DNA of 64,000 bases from Tubulanus polymorphus (lineage: Eukaryota > Nemertea > Palaeonemertea > Tubulaniformes > Tubulanidae): assembly GCF_964204645.1 (NCBI RefSeq), contig NC_134026.1, positions 25,066,650 to 25,130,649 of the forward strand, given 5' to 3'. Positions 1 to 50,756 of the stretch are shown piece by piece. A program made the position numbers and the translations under genes. Numbering within the stretch: position 1 is the stretch's first letter; every line of letters begins with the position of its first letter. Under the pieces are notes generated by a model, which was not told where the DNA came from, ran no database searches, and was given only the letters and a program-made list of their open reading frames with translations.

Positions 1-512
1 TTTGATTCCTGGTGATCACTCCAATTCCCATATCAATAGATATTTGTCATATTTATTTTAGTACCATTTCTCGTTTCGAGAAATGTATTTATGTTGTTTA
101 CTAACATTGTTGTTGTACATGTCGTGTAGGGCTGCGATGGTCGTCCTCTAGCCAAGTTGGAGAGAATTGCCGTGTAATCCTGAGGATTCAGTACTTGAGA
201 ACACTCGGTCTAAAAGCTTTACGATACAATGCCATTACACGCAGAGAATATCCAGAGCGAGTGTCTTGCATTATTCCAATTTAATTGACTGTTTCATCAA
301 CACTGGGTATTGCACAACGCGATCCGCAATTTAGGACCCTAGATTTCATCGTTTTGGTTCTCGTTTGAAGGTTTCGTTATGACATCTGAAGTTACAAGTA
401 GCTTTCGGCCAAGGTGTCGTGTTGGATGACATTGTGTTGATGAATATTTGTGGAGCCCCAGTGTCAATTATTTCTGTGGACATCCTATAGCATTGATTCT
501 TTCTATTTTCAG
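1..512 (+). other. Upstream intron of the neuropeptide GPCR
   Basis: I find no coding exon here. The stretch ends in a polypyrimidine tract and an AG at 511-512, which is the acceptor for the first receptor exon seen. The exons for the extracellular N-terminus, TM1, TM2 and most of TM3 are not present, so they must lie upstream of the window edge. Confidence 0.6.
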
Positions 513-1978
513 CTGGTGTCCATTTCCGTGTCTGTGCTCACTCTGAGCGCCATCTCCGTCGAACGTTGGTACGCCATTTGCCACCCGCTCATGTTTATGA
601 GTACCGCAGCCCGGGCTAGAGCCATTATCTTCATCATCTGGATCGTTTCGCTGCTACTCGGCATTCCCGAACTCGTAACCTTACAAGCCGCGCCCAAGAG
701 ACAACTAGAAGGAGTGTCCGTGCTATTAACGAAGTGCATCCCTAACTGGAACCTTGTGTATCAAAACATTTTTCAGATTAGCATCATGATTGTGCTGTAC
801 ATAATTCCCCTGTCGTTGACGGGATTCTGTTACACGCAAATAGCTCGGTGTCTTTGGATTAATGTCATTCCAGGAGTGTCGGATCAGAGCACTTACGGTA
901 ATTTTCTTATCCGTAAATACTTTTTTAATAAAGTGAATCATCGAATAAATCGAAAAACGAACGGAAAAAGCGAGCTAAAAATTCAATTTGCTATTTTTTC
1001 TGAATGCATTTCATTATCAACTGAACGCGATCCTAGACACACAAAGAAACTTCATTTTTATGAACTTTGGAAAAACATTGTATTATATTCAATACAGCAT
1101 AAGGGAATTGTTCTTGTTTTTTTTTTCTAGCGAATTCTTCGACAAGCCGGGCACAGTCGGATCCTGGGGCCGAAAATCAACTACAATCGCGACGCAAAGC
1201 AGCTAAAATGTTGATAGCTGTTGTAATAATGTTTGCAATATGTTATTTGCCAGTACATTTACTGAACATTCTCAGGTAAGAATCAGATAATTTTCTTTAT
1301 CATCTTAACAGCAAGTGAACTTGAAAACTCCTTTAAAAGTTTCTGAATCCTCTCAGCTGTATATACGTATATATCGTCAACAATTAATAAGATAATTAAC
1401 CCGTGTTCGAGAATTCCTTCAATTTTCTTTTTTATTTGTTGTGTTTTAGATATGCCGGGATCACGAAAAGGATGGGATCAGGAAGCAGGCAAGTTACTGC
1501 CTTGTTTAGTCACTGGCTATGTTACTTCAACAGTGCTATCAATCCTGTCATTTATAATTTCATGAGTGGTAAGTGTGTAACTTAATTTTTCACAGAGATG
1601 TAACTTAATTTTTCACAGAGAATCTTTCGCAGAAGTCTTTACTGCAATTATTGTTTTCTCAAAACGGTTAGAAAATTCACAATTTTTCAAATTGCGTTGA
1701 ATGAATCCACCTTAGGATAGCGGATAACAATTTTTCAGCTTTTGCCCAGTTTGTATCCCGATAAACGATGAAATTGAATTGATGTTTTCGATATTTTATC
1801 TGTTTCAGCGAAATTCCGCAAAGAGTTCTCGTCAGTATGCACGTGCTGTTTCCGTGTGTGCATGCGCGCTGATGCCCATAGACGAGGCTATGGTGACAGT
1901 ATGTACTCATACAAATATACTAACAGCATCAGTCAAACAGAGCAAATCAGTATGAGTGCCATCAAAACTCAAGTGTGA
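513..1978 (+). CDS. Orexin/allatotropin-receptor-like neuropeptide GPCR (5' part outside window)
   Basis: Class A receptor for a neuropeptide, expected at the plasma membrane. Exons: 513-897, 1131-1275, 1450-1568 and 1809-1978, all with GT-AG junctions and matching phases (1, 2, 1). The first exon carries the end of TM3 with SVERWYAICHPL (an ERW form of DRY), TM4 and TM5, then an intracellular-loop motif LWINVIPG that matches the LWxxxIPG of orexin receptors. The second exon holds the third loop and TM6 (RKAAKMLIAVVIMFAICYLP, the family's CYLP form of CWxP). The third has TM7 with NSAINPVIYNFMSG. The last encodes a Cys-rich tail (VCTCCFRVC, probable palmitoylation) and stops at 1976-1978. TM1-TM3 start is missing because of the window edge. 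Known families orexin and allatotropin receptors are homologous, and I cannot separate them from this fragment. A donor inside the last exon may give a different tail (see 4513-4700). Confidence 0.9.
1577..1622 (+). repeat. 23-bp tandem duplication inside a receptor intron
   Basis: Two adjacent units (1577-1599 and 1600-1622) differ at one base. Each contains a pyrimidine tract followed by CACAG, so each resembles a splice acceptor just after the TM7 exon. Confidence 0.8.
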
Positions 1979-26100: not shown

Positions 26101-29100
26101 TTTCATAATGCACTGCTACAGCTAAAAAAGACACCTTTCATAATGCACTAAAAACCAAAATGGTTAAGTACTGAAGAGCCGATTGATTCAGAGATCACAG
26201 CCAACGATTGTTTAAGACAGTAGCAGTTAATTCATATTCATAATGCAAATACTTGCCTAGATAACATATATTCATATTGTTTTGCATTATCTAATTCATG
26301 TTTCATGAAATATTGCAGATGTTTTGGAGTATTGATATATAGACGGCACGGTTTGATCAACAGGTGACTTGAAACCAACTACATGAACTACAGTGACATC
26401 ACGACTTGTCCATAGACGGAGGAACGCTATAAATTGATATACAAAAACATTGGCTGTTTTAACATGGAAAAATGTACGAATACCATAAGTGAATTACATG
26501 TAGCAAAGTTTTACTGATATTGATGCACAGTCTTGAGTAGATTCGTGCATCAATCATCCAGTTGATAAGTTGTGTGTGGCTTCATGAATACGCTCAGGAT
26601 ATGGAAATATACAGCTGATTTCAGCTACACGAAATCGAGTCAAAAATGTCCGGACACAATGCATCAATCCACGATGCTGACCACGCTAGCATGGACCAAA
26701 GCGAGGCATTTTACCTCTTCATCATGTCAGCAACTGGTATTTTCCTCAACCTCATTATTATCTTGATATGTGCTATCAAGTCAAGTATGCAACGTATGAC
26801 AAGCGCATTCCTTATTCACGGCTGCATTTTGGACATCGTCAAGTGTGCGTACTGTATCCCGTTCGGCATGAGTATCCTCACCCATGAACCACCTGAGTTT
26901 TGCAAATTCATCGGCGGTTCTTACATCATAGTGATATCTGCTTATATCTTCAATATGATTTGCATGGTGTGCTCGGAAGCGTACAATTTCGCCGATGACC
27001 AGTTTGGAGGTAGTAATACCGGTAATATCTGCTGTGTGATATTCGGAATAGTCATGATATACATAGGCAGTGTCATTTTGCATCTCGGACCAACGATCGT
27101 AGGAGGCAGTTTCCAATTCAATAAAATTCTCGGCCAGTGCGTGTTCGACTATGGACAAACTCCCGCATATGTCATATACATCATGTGGGTTTTAGTCACT
27201 ACTCTTTCGATGGGAGCGATATGCCATTACTTGTGGACATTTTACAAAAACGTCAAGAACCACAACGAACGACGATTAACGAACATAATTCGAGCTTCCA
27301 TGGAACAGGGAACGGTGCCGGACGAGCCGCGTATACCTCCGCATAAAGTACGCAAACTCGTTCAAGATGCGATGAGTCGCGTGCGTTGCTTTACCATCAT
27401 TCTAGTCGTGTTTGTTATTAGTTGGTATCCATTGTTTATAATAACGATTGCCGATCCGAACTTCAACTTTCCGCCGACGATGTACATTATGATGACGCTT
27501 ATCGCGTGGTCGCACGGCACGTTCAATCCCGTCATATTCTTGCTCGTCGATAACAAACTGAATGTGATACGCAACTTAATCTGTCGAAATTGTGATAAAA
27601 CGCCATCCGTGAAAGAAAACTTTCCGCTAATGTCTCCTACGTTCGCTCGCACAAGTTCAATACAAATGTTCGAACGGGTTGGTTGTAGATTATGCCACGA
27701 AGGCAAATCTCACAACACAAATTTATGCAATGGCCGTTTAGGTAATGGCGGCCTTGTGCGCAATAATTCATTCTGTGAAATACACACTGTAAGTGACTGT
27801 TGATGAATTATGTGTTTTCTATGTTAAGATTTCATACTCAGCTCATTGTAAATAGTCATCATTTTATATCAATTTGTATTCTGAGCAGACATTGGGATAT
27901 GTACAATATTTGACGCGTACAATTTGGTTTTATTGAGATTGGTACCTTTATCTCCTATAATCGGAAGGAATCCCAAACATCTCTTTCTCTATCAGTTACG
28001 TCAGTCTTTCTAATCAGATTACATGAAAAGGGTATCAATGTCGTAAAATCAATTCGATGTTCATAGATAATCAGCCGTTCTTTCAAATCCGAAATCCGAT
28101 GTAAATGTCTAAAGACTATTGATACTATTGACAATCCCGTCAGTCTGATCTATTCTTTTCGTAGCAAAATGTCAGCATCGAGTCACGAAAGCTCAAGATT
28201 TGGAAAAAGATGCTGCAAAATTCAAATTTGAAAAGAACTCAGAATGAGTGATTAGATTTAACTATCAATGAACGCTGTTCAAAGATGTTAAAATGGATAT
28301 ACCGGTAAGAATCTCTTGAAATCTAACATTAAATTGGCTTCTATGAAATTACACGTGTGTTGTGCTATTTTCTGAATACAAAATATCCATATCCAAATTG
28401 ATTTAAGGAGACTTAACTTGCAGGTTACGGTATTAGACTACATAACATACCCGTTTGAAAATTGTTTTAATATAAACTTGATGCCATTAGTAGCATTGAT
28501 GAGGTTCAAATAAAATATAGAGCATTTTTGCCCTTTAGCATTTAATCAACCAAACAGCTGTCATAAGGAAATGTCACTTACTTTTTGAAATTTATTGATT
28601 GATTTTGAGTGATCAATTTTCTTGTGAAAGTGATTGTTCTGATTACGTTTGAATCGGCGATGTCTGTTTTGTTATTAGAATACTGTACACCGTTCAACGA
28701 TATACCTGATGAATAAAGTCAAAGTGTATACAACGAAACAAATTCATTTCAGCGTGATCTTTTTCCTAATTGAATGCCACAAATGGAGGCAGAAAATGTA
28801 TCCCAACCAACTCAAGTTGACGTGTATTGGAAAACAATGTCATAAACTAGAATGACCATGAAATCATCTGATTCCTTGAGTGCATGAATACGTATTATTG
28901 TTTATTCATGGCACAACCACTGAGAATTAACCCACCATGATGTGATGTATTGCTTGTTCTAACCAATTTATCCGATGCCTACTCCCAACGTGTCATGCAG
29001 AATGCTTCCCTTCTTATTAATCAAAATACATGTCCATGTCCGTCTGTAACTGAGATCCTCCAGTATCACCAATTGAAGAAAAGACAATGGAACTAATCAA

Positions 29101-37810: not shown

Positions 37811-37858
37811 GTAGCTGTGATAGAAAAGTTGACCTGTGCTTGTGTCTGAGCCTAAGTC

Positions 37859-39545
37859 ATGACCCGCGGGGATAGGTATAAGGTACTTTGTCTAATATTG
37901 GGAGTGGTTGTATTAGTCTATGTTATCCGCGATGCTACGAATACCGGTGGTGGTGACAGGGATATGTTCTTTTCCCGTCGGGTTCTGCGTGGACAGTCTT
38001 TTGACAGCACTGATCATTTGGAGGTGAAGAAACCGAATGAGCTGATTCGTATGGATAAAAACGTGCCAATTATTTGGATAGGCGGCGTGCCGAGAAGTGG
38101 AACAACGCTATCGCGAGCGATTCTCGATGCTCATCCGGATATCCGGTGCGGCGAGGAAACCCGAGTCATTCCACGTATGCTTTTCATGCACTCAAAAATG
38201 CAAATGTCTCAAATTGAAAAAGCTCGTCTAGACGAAGCTAAAGTGACCGAGGATGTTCTGGAGTACGCTCTAGGATCATATATTCTAAGTATTATCGTCA
38301 AACACGGCGAACCCGCTGCTCGACTTTGTAACAAAGACCCATTCACCCTTAAATCAATGGATCTAATAATGAAAATCTTCCCGCAGTCAAAATTCATCTT
38401 AATGATTCGAGATGGAAGGGCCGTGGCACATTCCATCGTCACTCGTAAAATTACCATTTCCGGCTTCGACACGAAAACATACAGTGGGGCTCTTAGAGAC
38501 TGGAATCGGGCAATTCAAGTCATGTATCGTAAATGTCTGAAAATGAGCCATGTGTGTATGCCCCTGTGGTATGAACAATTGGTCATCGATCCCGAGCCTC
38601 AAATGAGAAAAGTTCTTAAGTTCTTAGACATTCCGTGGAATGATATTGTATTGCACCATGAACAAACTATTGGAAAAGAAGGTGGAATTTCACTCTCTAA
38701 GTAAGTGGTGTAGGTGTGTCTTCCCTGACTGAATTTTCCGGCTTATTTCATGAATTGTCTGGTGGTATTGAGACCTTGAAATGATAAACTGACAGTTTGT
38801 TATTCCAAGACTAGAGCATAGAGAATTTTATATCAATGTTCTGATTAGAGAATCCTGGAGATCCTTGTCATGTTTGTTGATGATGAATATTTTTAGAATG
38901 TCGTAATCAATCGGATAAAGCATATGTAGGTGGAGTGAATTTAATTCCAGGATTATTGATAGCGGTTTATATTTTTTCATTCCACTTCCAAAAAGAATAC
39001 TTGAAAATTCTGAACGCAAGCATTATCTATGAAAACCACAAACTTGACTTAAATGAATCAAACCTATAATAAACATTATTATTTGCTCATTAAGGGATGA
39101 AATTTAGCAATTCATTTTTTCATCATCAACACTACCACTTAACAAATTTCCGATGCTTGGGCATATTATATAGAACTTTCTTCTTAGGTTGTCTTCAAGT
39201 TTTTGATTGCAAATAGTCTTCTAATTAAGTTCTGCCATATACCAGTAGATAGAAAAATTTTTGTAAATTAAAAAAGCAAGTTCTCAATCAATTTTTTTTT
39301 TTTTTATAAGGAGAGAAAGATCAACAGACCAGGTGAACAAACCTGTCAACACGGATGCTCTTTACAAATGGATTGAATTGATGCCAAAATCAGTGAAAGA
39401 TAACGCTGGCTCTATTGCGCCAATGTTAAAAGACCTTGGATATGATCCTGACAACCCGATAGTCAATTATGGTACAAAATCTGATGATGCTGTAGCTAAG
39501 GAAGTTGCTGTGCTACAGACGCTTACTGATGATCAAGATTCGTGA
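37859..39545 (+). CDS. TPST: Tyrosylprotein sulfotransferase, copy 1
   Basis: A Golgi type II membrane enzyme that transfers sulfate from PAPS to tyrosines of secreted and membrane proteins. Exons 37859-38700 and 39311-39545 (phase 2) give 358 aa, close to the vertebrate length. A short basic cytosolic N-terminus is followed by a signal anchor at about residues 8-22 (YKVLCLILGVVVLVYVI). The catalytic domain starts with WIGGVPRSGTTLSRAILDAH (5'-phosphosulfate loop) and CGEETR with the catalytic Glu. LMIRDGRAVAHSI is the 3'-phosphate-binding strand, and GGISLSK|RERSTDQVNKPVN spans the intron. The C-terminal LGYDPDNPIVNYG is typical. The ATG at 37859 opens the anchor directly. A paralog lies about 7.4 kb downstream on the same strand. 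Which vertebrate TPST is the ortholog cannot be decided; the duplication looks lineage-specific. Confidence 0.96.
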
Positions 39546-46700: not shown

Positions 46701-46920
46701 AGACAGGTAATACAACAGCATAACACATGTTGACACCATAAATGGATGGATTATTGAGTCGTGATTATTGTTCGTAAATGTTTTATTGCTTTCCTCATCA
46801 GCTGCTCTCTTGCGGAATTTATAGTTTCGGTAACACATGGAGCCCACCCGCCCCTTACACAGAAGACACTTATACGTAGGTGTACGACTAATGTGTTTGC
46901 TTCCTTAATCCAGTTCCGCC
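43768..46920. other. Region between sulfotransferase paralogs, second part
   Basis: AT-rich sequence with small palindromes (44719-44741) and no clear gene. Overlapping minus-strand open frames at 46144-46847 have no recognised homology. The stretch just before 46921 must hold the promoter of copy 2. Confidence 0.5.
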
Positions 46921-48109
46921 ATGTCTCGTGCTGAAGGGTACAAGATCTTGAGTATATTTTTGGGTTTTGTGATTTTAATCTATGTATTACGCGACTTAAC
47001 AGAAGTTCCGAAAGGCAGCGATGACGAATTTTATATTCGTAAAATATATCAACGACACAGCCAAAAGAAGAACGCCAACGAGTCTTTGAAGCAGGAAGAT
47101 GAAATGGTGTACACGGCAAGCGACGTACCTTTAATTTGGATCGGTGGTGTGCCCAGAAGTGGTACAACATTGTCGCGAGCGCTTCTCGATGCACATCCAG
47201 ATGTTCGTTGTGGAGAAGAGACCCGGGTTATTCCCCAAATGTTGTCATTTCATGCTCGAATGCAAAATTCTGAACTCGAAAAAGCTCGTCTGGATGAAGC
47301 GAAAGTTACTGTCGATGTTATGGAATCCGCCTTGAAGAGTTATATTCTCAGTATCATTGTGAATCACGGAGAACCAGCCCTCAGATACTGTAACAAAGAT
47401 CCGTTCACTTTAAGATCCATGAATCTCATTTTGAGATTATTTCCAAATTCGAAGTTTATCTTAATGGTGAGAGATGGAAGAGCCGTCGTTCATTCAATTA
47501 TTTCTCGTAAAGTTTTAATTTCGGGATTTAACACGGACTCGTACAGCGACGCTTTGAGAGACTGGAACAGAGCGTTTTACTTCATGTACAAACTATGCCT
47601 TCAAAACAGTAAAGTATGTATGCCCGTTCCGTACGAAAAGCTTGTTATAGATCCAGAACCACAACTTCGACGAATTTTCAAATTTTTGGACATTCCTTGG
47701 AATGATATTGTATTACATCACGAACGAACAATTGGAAAACGAGGAGGAGTTTCACTTTCAAGGTATGTCTGTACAGGGTCATCAGGTGCTTTATCAAAAT
47801 TCAAACATTCGTGAACGAATACGAACTGCGGACCATGTTCTATTAGCTTACCTCTCGTCGTTATTCTCCAAAACTCCAAATTTAGATGTATATGTATTTG
47901 ATTCTAGGAAAGAAGCTTCGACGGACCAGGTGAACAAACCCATCAATACAAAAGCCCTTTACGAATGGGTAAAACATATGCCGAAAATGGTCAAGGATAA
48001 TGCAGCAGTCATCGCCCCGATGTTGAAAGTAGTTGGATATGATCCGGATAATCCAGTCGTCAACTACGGAACAAAACCCGAAGAATTGGCTACAGAATCT
48101 ATGGATTAG
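46921..48109 (+). CDS. TPST: Tyrosylprotein sulfotransferase, copy 2
   Basis: Tandem paralog of the gene at 37859. Exons 46921-47762 and 47908-48109 give 347 aa; the single intron interrupts the same codon in the same phase (2) but is only 145 bp against 610 bp. The signal anchor is YKILSIFLGFVILIYVL at residues 7-23. Conserved blocks are WIGGVPRSGTTLSRALLDAH, CGEETRVIP with the catalytic Glu, LMVRDGRAVVHSI and LDIPWNDIVLHHE. The C-terminus has STDQVNKPIN, IAPMLKVVGYDPDNPVVNYG, then ends 11 residues earlier than copy 1. The stem between anchor and catalytic domain differs most between copies. All binding motifs are intact, so both should be active enzymes in the trans-Golgi. There is no sign of decay. 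Confidence 0.96.
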
Positions 48110-50060: not shown

Positions 50061-50270
50061 AAAAAGGATGGCATCATTATCAACAGACTTCGACTGTAAA
50101 TACAAATGACAGCCATCTTGATCAGAATATCATACTTATATTTCACCCAAAGATCATCAGACATGCATTTATTCAATCATGGGCATTATTGTCATAAAAA
50201 CAGGTCCAGACATAATGAATTCAAATATATGAGACGAGAAGATACACAATATCCGTGTAAGATGATAACG

Positions 50271-50436
50271 AGAGAAATCCCACAATAAATTCAGTACGCC
50301 TAATAAAAGTAATTTACTACAGTAAATGCAGTACGCCTGATGATGGCTAATAGTCTTTAGCCGAAACGTTGCGCAAATATATATACTCTTCTAGTCAAGT
50401 TTCTCGTTTTGGCTGAATTTATTGTGGGTTTTCTCT
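50271..50436 (+). mobile_element. 166-bp fold-back element with hammerhead-like core
   Basis: Terminal inverted repeats 50271-50294 and 50413-50436 match at 23 of 24 bases. Inside, the block CAGTACGCCT occurs twice (50292 and 50328). The second copy runs into CTGATGA (50337-50343), a 6-bp stem GGCTAA/TTAGCC (50345-50350 with 50357-50362) and GAAAC (50363). That is the order of the hammerhead ribozyme core. See the findings. Confidence 0.65.
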
Positions 50437-50438
50437 AG

Positions 50439-50756
50439 TCATTCAAATAGACATCACCATAGATAGAAAATCTAGTTAGCATACATGTATGGTTTACATC
50501 AACTCGATGTTAAAAACGTATGACATGCAAACAAATGTACATGTAGTAGTAAGATTTTTGTCCCAAACCGTCGGTGACAACTGGCATCATACATAAAACT
50601 CAAGATGCAGTTACTTCCAATGCTTCTCATTTCTCAATCCTCTTATAACGCTACGCAAACTAAGTTATTTCATGTGAAAAAACAAATTGCACCTCGCAAA
50701 ATTAATCACGCTGACATTGGGCAGTCTCTACATATTGTATTTAATACCAGTTTATA
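50439..50756 (-). other. 3' UTR of GOSR1 and flank
   Basis: No coding sequence. An ATTAAA on the minus strand lies very close to the stop (50739-50744); an AATAAA is supplied by the right arm of the fold-back element at 50418-50423. Confidence 0.4.

What the first reader, a model, noticed from the sequence alone, without database searches (positions are those of the whole stretch)
50271..50436. Fold-back element carrying a hammerhead-ribozyme-like core
Between 24-bp inverted repeats lies CTGATGA, a 6-bp stem II with a 6-base loop, then GAAAC, in hammerhead order. CGC before the core can pair with GCG after it as stem I, with a very short stem III (ACGT). One extra U sits between CTGATGA and stem II. 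Minimal hammerheads with tiny stem III occur in Penelope-like retroelements and retrozymes (established). That this copy cleaves is inference. The duplicated CAGTACGCCT suggests a dimeric ancestor, as retrozymes have.
Basis: partly seen in the sequence, partly recalled or inferred. Interest (0 to 1): 0.6.

Follow-up and report, generated by a model that had tools for sequence, protein, structure and literature searches.

The report
Penelope retroelement fragment with hammerhead ribozyme
The stretch is a small dead copy of the start of a Penelope-like jumping gene's RNA, pasted in back to back; it carries the hammerhead-ribozyme motif this kind of element is known for, and comparing its many relatives suggests that the ribozyme's cut does not set where inserted copies begin.

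Summary
An intact hammerhead core (C3-A9 = 50337-50343, one extra U, 6-bp stem II, GAAAC, stem I CGC/GCG) lies in a fold-back element. It is not a retrozyme. It is a 213-bp ORF-less insertion (50228-50440) with a 9-bp target-site duplication (ATTCAAATA), made by a Penelope-like element (PLE) of this 268-Mb eukaryotic genome. The left arm is the reverse complement of the PLE leader end including its 'tail'; the right part is the mRNA leader from the 5' edge of the ribozyme to the other insertion end. The genome holds 525 near-copies of the core and intact PLE ORFs (RT + GIY-YIG). Stems I and II covary at all 11 pairs, the extra U is in 49 of 50 distinct copies, and two PLE families found through their ORFs alone keep the core. 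Minimal dimer-type hammerheads in PLEs are known, so this is a new member of a known kind. Added here: four PLE families carry TATA at -31/-29 and an initiator at +1, 4-7 nt before the ribozyme; 42 of 79 mapped 5' ends lie at that edge and none within 2 nt of the cut; 37 of 38 complete insertions carry exactly one tailed end. Cleavage itself was not tested.

The parts
50219..50227 (.). left target-site duplication ATTCAAATA
50228..50440 (+). whole insertion: ORF-less fold-back derivative of a Penelope-like element
   Evidence: TSD bounds; blastn to full PLE locus L026 at 96% (50329-50436) and 95% (50294-50229, reverse)
50229..50264 (-). PLE 'tail' (about 35 nt between the two alternative 3' end sites), inverted
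   Evidence: tail as described in PMC3846280 and PMC11167929
50265..50294 (-). inverted terminal part of the PLE leader (left arm of the fold-back)
50295..50328 (.). junction filler; CAGTACGCCT (50292-50301) overlaps its start and resembles the leader 5' end
   Evidence: sequence; filler differs between copies
50329..50440 (+). PLE mRNA leader copy from the initiator / 5' edge of the hammerhead to end site 1
50330..50330 (+). predicted +1 (A) of the PLE mRNA; the copy starts here, without the TATA box
   Evidence: inference
50334..50373 (+). minimal type I hammerhead: stem I CGC (50334-50336) / GCG (50371-50373), core CTGATGA 50337-50343, extra U 50344, stem II 50345-50362, GAAAC 50363-50367
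50370..50371 (+). predicted cleavage site GUU^GCG (not tested)
   Evidence: hammerhead numbering; inference
50413..50440 (+). right arm of the fold-back (end without tail)
50441..50449 (.). right target-site duplication ATTCAAATA

Best explanation
The element is a non-autonomous by-product of a GIY-YIG-containing Penelope-like retroelement. The PLE promoter (TATA at -31, TCA initiator at +1) starts the mRNA a few bases before a minimal type I hammerhead, so the ribozyme is the first ~47 nt of the RNA. The PLE protein cut both DNA strands at a new site and started reverse transcription inside the RNA leader, on one strand at the distal site (leaving the tail) and on the other at the proximal site. 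Both cDNAs ran towards the RNA 5' end; here the right one reached it and the left stopped early. The two cDNA ends joined head to head with filler, leaving an inverted, promoterless 213-bp copy with a short target duplication. The template was RNA not cut by the hammerhead. The ribozyme probably acts only when two copies pair through the self-complementary ACGU of stem III, or with protein help. Shown here: homology, architecture, covariation, insertion ends, one-tail asymmetry. Inferred: transcription start, bilateral target-primed synthesis, dimer or protein-assisted activity.
For: PLE identity: RT and GIY-YIG domains in ORFs of 817 aa without stops, flanked by the same leader; window arms match it at 95-96%. 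Hammerhead: 27 distinct copies, double changes at all 11 pairs, covariation 0.41 against 0.20 shuffled (0/500) and 0.17 or less when slid; families C and D, found only through their ORFs, keep the core with different complementary stems and a different base at the free position 7. Promoter: TATA-like at -31 or -29 and TCA at +1 in four families. 5' ends: 42 of 79 mapped ends lie 33-47 nt upstream of the cut, 0 within 2 nt of it; family C agrees (ends at 40-46 in most of 11). Head-to-head neighbours 54, tail-to-tail 1. One tailed and one untailed end in 37 of 38 insertions. PMC11167929: an Anolis PLE cuts and extends both strands, starts reverse transcription at two internal sites that bound the tail, and its hammerhead is active only with protein and not needed for insertion.
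Against: The transcription start is predicted from promoter motifs and insertion ends, not measured. The most frequent family-A end (43 nt from the cut) is two bases upstream of the predicted +1, so junction microhomology or a slightly different start must be invoked. The monomer's minimum-energy fold is a rod hairpin, not a hammerhead. Copies were read from lists limited to the first ~100 places.
Confidence: 0.85

Rival explanations
1. It is a retrozyme: a small non-autonomous retroelement whose hammerheads cut a multimeric transcript into units that circularise and are copied back.
For: Size (213 bp) within the 170-400 nt range of animal retrozymes (PMC7229834); a hammerhead; a short repeat CAGTACGCCT.
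Against: No tandem monomers; architecture is head-to-head inverted (54 to 1); minimal not canonical type I hammerhead; no insertion ends at the ribozyme cut; the arms match a full PLE at 95-96%. Rfam Hammerhead_1 finds nothing in the genome, but its control was also silent.
Confidence: 0.04
2. A DNA-transposon fold-back or MITE that captured a hammerhead-like hairpin.
For: Terminal inverted repeats and a target-site duplication.
Against: The arms end at two different fixed sites of the PLE leader (one with tail, one without) in 37 of 38 insertions, which a transposase acting on identical ends would not give; every part outside the filler matches the PLE.
Confidence: 0.02
3. The conserved motif is a protein-binding hairpin of the PLE leader, no longer a ribozyme; the hammerhead likeness is a relic.
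For: The monomer folds best as a rod hairpin; insertion ends ignore the cut; in the Anolis PLE the ribozyme is not needed for insertion (PMC11167929).
Against: Two families found through the ORF keep the core bases while both stems change sequence and only the free position 7 varies; related PLE hammerheads are reported to cleave with protein (PMC11167929) and as dimers (Lunse et al. 2017, cited in PMC7761336, not read here).
Confidence: 0.2
4. The inverted structure comes from self-priming on an antisense RNA template, as proposed for Adineta vaga Penelope elements (PMC3846280), rather than from two cDNAs primed on the two target strands.
For: Head-to-head arrangement and palindromic junctions, as in A. 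vaga; the authors considered this the best reading in 2013.
Against: Self-priming should copy the same end on both arms; instead one arm has the tail and the other stops at the proximal site. An Anolis PLE protein extends both target strands in vitro (PMC11167929).
Confidence: 0.12

Closest known systems
Minimal hammerhead ribozymes of Penelope-like elements (Cervera and de la Pena 2014; Lunse et al. 2017; both known here through citing papers such as PMC7761336)
   Same: Type I order, full core, stem III reduced to the self-complementary ACGU, located in PLE pLTRs, very many genomic copies.
   Different: The nearly invariant extra U after A9 could be checked here only in this genome; these families are new members.
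Poseidon PLE of Anolis carolinensis (PAc; PMC11167929)
   Same: Hammerhead in the leader just before two internal RT start sites that bound a tail; GIY-YIG plus RT protein. The paper's statement that G8 precedes the start codon at the start of stem II implies the same CUGAUGAUGG with an extra U (my inference).
   Different: In PAc the hammerhead straddles the ORF start; in family A the ORF ATG lies at +152, just past the tail. Cleavage was not tested here.
Penelope elements of Adineta vaga (PMC3846280)
   Same: Inverted head-to-head pLTRs, tail on one of them, TSDs of 8-10 bp, TATA plus initiator, palindrome at the pLTR 5' end.
   Different: That paper does not mention hammerheads and favours antisense self-priming; here the tail is on exactly one end in 37 of 38 insertions and 5' ends map to the initiator.
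Animal non-LTR retrozymes (PMC7229834)
   Same: Small, non-coding, contain a type I hammerhead.
   Different: Retrozymes are tandem repeats with canonical hammerheads and circular RNAs; this is an inverted PLE fragment with a minimal hammerhead.

Membership tests
Penelope-like elements (EN+) | single ORF with reverse transcriptase and GIY-YIG endonuclease in the autonomous relatives | tested here: met
   RVT_1 (best E 6e-8) and GIY-YIG (E 5e-6) in L025/L026; 817-aa open frames. RVT_1 is slightly below the Pfam cut-off in one of the two fragments.
Penelope-like elements (EN+) | pLTRs in tandem or inverted, with optional 30-40-nt tail | tested here: met
   tandem spacing 2857 nt, head-to-head pairs, 35-nt tail
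Penelope-like elements (EN+) | short variable target-site duplication | tested here: met
   mostly 9-15 bp including microhomology; ATTCAAATA in the window
Penelope-like elements (EN+) | RT phylogenetically in the PLE/telomerase clade | not tested
   no tree was built; assignment rests on RT + GIY-YIG + pLTR + tail
Hammerhead ribozyme (minimal type I, PLE type) | core C3 U4 G5 A6 N7 G8 A9 / G12 A13 A14 | tested here: met
   window sequence; kept in families C and D chosen through the ORF, N7 variable
Hammerhead ribozyme (minimal type I, PLE type) | stems I and II supported by covariation | tested here: met
   all 11 pairs with double changes
Hammerhead ribozyme (minimal type I, PLE type) | stem III reduced to a self-complementary ACGU, dimer geometry | tested here: met
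   GAAACGUU in the window and GAAACGU in the ORF-anchored families C and D; GAAACGT was part of the search pattern
Hammerhead ribozyme (minimal type I, PLE type) | self-cleavage at the predicted site | not testable with these tools
   no bench data; the monomer folds as a rod
Rfam Hammerhead_1 / Hammerhead_3 | score above the gathering cut-off | tested here: not met
   no match; controls were silent, so the genome-wide negatives are weak
Retrozyme (animal non-LTR) | tandem repeat units of about 170-400 bp with canonical type I hammerheads | tested here: not met
   single inverted element; minimal hammerhead
Retrozyme (animal non-LTR) | circular RNA intermediate | not testable with these tools
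   no RNA data

The most novel reading that the evidence does not exclude
Insertion ends in this genome record the PLE mechanism in vivo: each insertion uses both RT start sites, one per target strand, and both cDNAs run off at an uncut mRNA 5' end that lies directly at the hammerhead. The ribozyme would then be a 5'-terminal leader element acting at another step (for example on read-through or tandem transcripts, or as a dimer), not the maker of the insertion template.
Probability: 0.45. Interest if true: 0.6.

Novelty: new member of a known kind. Interest (0 to 1): 0.38.

Why it matters
[quoted passage not shown] One genome with hundreds of copies makes part of that testable: insertion ends point to the predicted transcription start and not to the ribozyme cut, in line with the in vitro result for the Anolis element. 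The near-strict one-tail asymmetry limits models of how PLE proteins handle two target strands. The window element itself is an ordinary dead copy without promoter or ORF.

Tried and rejected
Rfam hammerhead models: no hits. COX1 search to place the organism: no match, host unidentified. One pattern for unusual cores was one base off in length and was discarded. Rejected: retrozyme dimer (inverted, minimal hammerhead, ends not at the cut), MITE (unequal fixed ends). Conservation of the core inside the 50-copy set is not counted as evidence, since those copies were chosen by the core; only stems, the extra U and the ORF-anchored families are. Some end-6 nt downstream of the cut lie in AT repeats and may be false. 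Original papers on PLE hammerheads (PMC4209133, PMC5785218) are not held and were used only through citing papers.

Full report
Observation. The sequence reads as described. The core is CTGATGA 50337-50343, T 50344, stem II 50345-50362 with a 6-nt loop, GAAAC 50363-50367, GTT 50368-50370, then GCG, which pairs with CGC 50334-50336. Stem III is only the palindrome ACGU, so it can form between two copies but not within one. The exact CTGATGA-N19-GAAAC pattern occurs once in the window. In the genome, a gapped form gives 1274 matches against 56 for the reversed control, and the 32-nt core with up to three mismatches gives 525 against 0.

What it is. A DNA search with 50240-50460 returned at least 91 matches. 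Most cover 50329-50442 at about 95%, and the best-preserved sit beside ORFs with reverse transcriptase and GIY-YIG domains, in units whose hammerheads repeat every 2857 nt: a Penelope-like element with tandem pLTRs. Segment 50229-50294 is the reverse complement of the end of the same leader, including a 35-nt tail. The insertion is 50228-50440, flanked by ATTCAAATA on both sides. It has no ORF and lacks the TATA box that full pLTRs have, so it is probably silent (inference). The repeated CAGTACGCCT lies at the start of the junction filler; other copies of the family have other filler, so it is best read as a template-jump product, not as a dimeric ancestor (inference).

Is it a hammerhead? From fetched copies, 50 distinct 47-nt motifs were taken; 49 have U after A9. 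On 27 distinct ones, all 11 pairs of stems I and II show changes on both sides; the covariation score is 0.41 against 0.20 in shuffles (0 of 500 reach it) and at most 0.17 when the partner is slid. These copies were picked by the core pattern, so core conservation was tested separately: PLE ORFs 52-100% identical to family A were located by protein, and regions upstream of ten of them were read. Family C (69% identical) has CTGAAGA-T-GACTAT/ATAGTC-GAAAC with a 6-bp stem I (TTATTC/GAATAA). Family D (54%) has CTGACGA-T-GATCTC/GAGATC-GAAAC with CACAC/GTGT. Only the free position 7 of the core differs. Several of the ten loci had no leader in the fetched stretch. Rfam hammerhead models did not detect any of these. 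The monomer's best fold is a rod, consistent with dimer or protein-assisted action as reported for PLE hammerheads. [quoted passage not shown]

Promoter and leader. In families A, B, C and D a TATA-like box lies at -31 or -29 of a TCA initiator that is 7, 7, 7 and 4 nt before C3 (for family D the TCA was chosen to fit). In family A the cut is at +41, the two insertion end sites at about +115 and +149, and the ORF ATG at +152. TATA plus initiator in PLE pLTRs was noted before (PMC3846280).

Where insertions end. With an anchor downstream of the cut, so independent of the ribozyme, 97 distinct family-A copies were read; 79 have a mapped 5' end. Of these, 42 fall 33-47 nt upstream of the cut, at the ribozyme's 5' edge, and none within 2 nt of the cut. 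In family C most of 11 ends lie 40-46 nt upstream and none at the cut. Head-to-head neighbours number 54 against 1 tail-to-tail, with spacings peaking near two start-to-anchor distances and none at two cut-to-anchor distances. Thus the inserted copies were templated by RNA not cut at this site (inference). The commonest family-A end is two bases beyond the predicted +1; in part of the cases this is explained by the partner strand sharing TCAG.

One tail per insertion. Among 38 insertions with both arms, 37 have one end at site 1 and the other at site 2; the 38th (L033) is a degraded copy whose left arm continues into tail sequence. The tail on one of two inverted pLTRs is known (PMC3846280), and an Anolis PLE protein extends both target strands from two internal RNA sites that bound the tail (PMC11167929). 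The near-strict one-each rule seen here suggests that each site is used once per insertion; this is inference.

Verdict. Known kind, new member. The window copy is ordinary; the family-wide end map is the part a specialist would use.

Noticed in passing
L001-L133 (family A insertions): 37 of 38 complete head-to-head PLE insertions carry exactly one tailed and one untailed end.
   Followed up: partly
L160:32-132: Near-perfect palindromic family-C fold-backs score as microRNA precursors in Rfam (MIR7994, mir-4662; E to 8e-12 but below gathering score), a possible source of false miRNA calls.
   Followed up: no
window 37856-38704 and 46909-47814: Two related sulfotransferase-domain ORFs on the same strand, about 9 kb apart, probably a local duplication; motifs resemble tyrosylprotein sulfotransferase (Pfam Sulfotransfer_3; the finer name is from reading).
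   Followed up: partly
window 444-1130 and 26619-27803: ORFs with rhodopsin-family 7TM receptor domains.
   Followed up: no
L018:1650-2563 and one family-C neighbour pair on the list: Rare tail-to-tail neighbours against 54 head-to-head; probably separate insertions.
   Followed up: no
window 50343-50370 and families A and B: The extra U makes an AUG (A9-U-G) in the core; in family A it opens a 5-codon frame ending in stem II, in family B about 19 codons, so the ribozyme leader carries a short upstream ORF (read from sequence).
   Followed up: no
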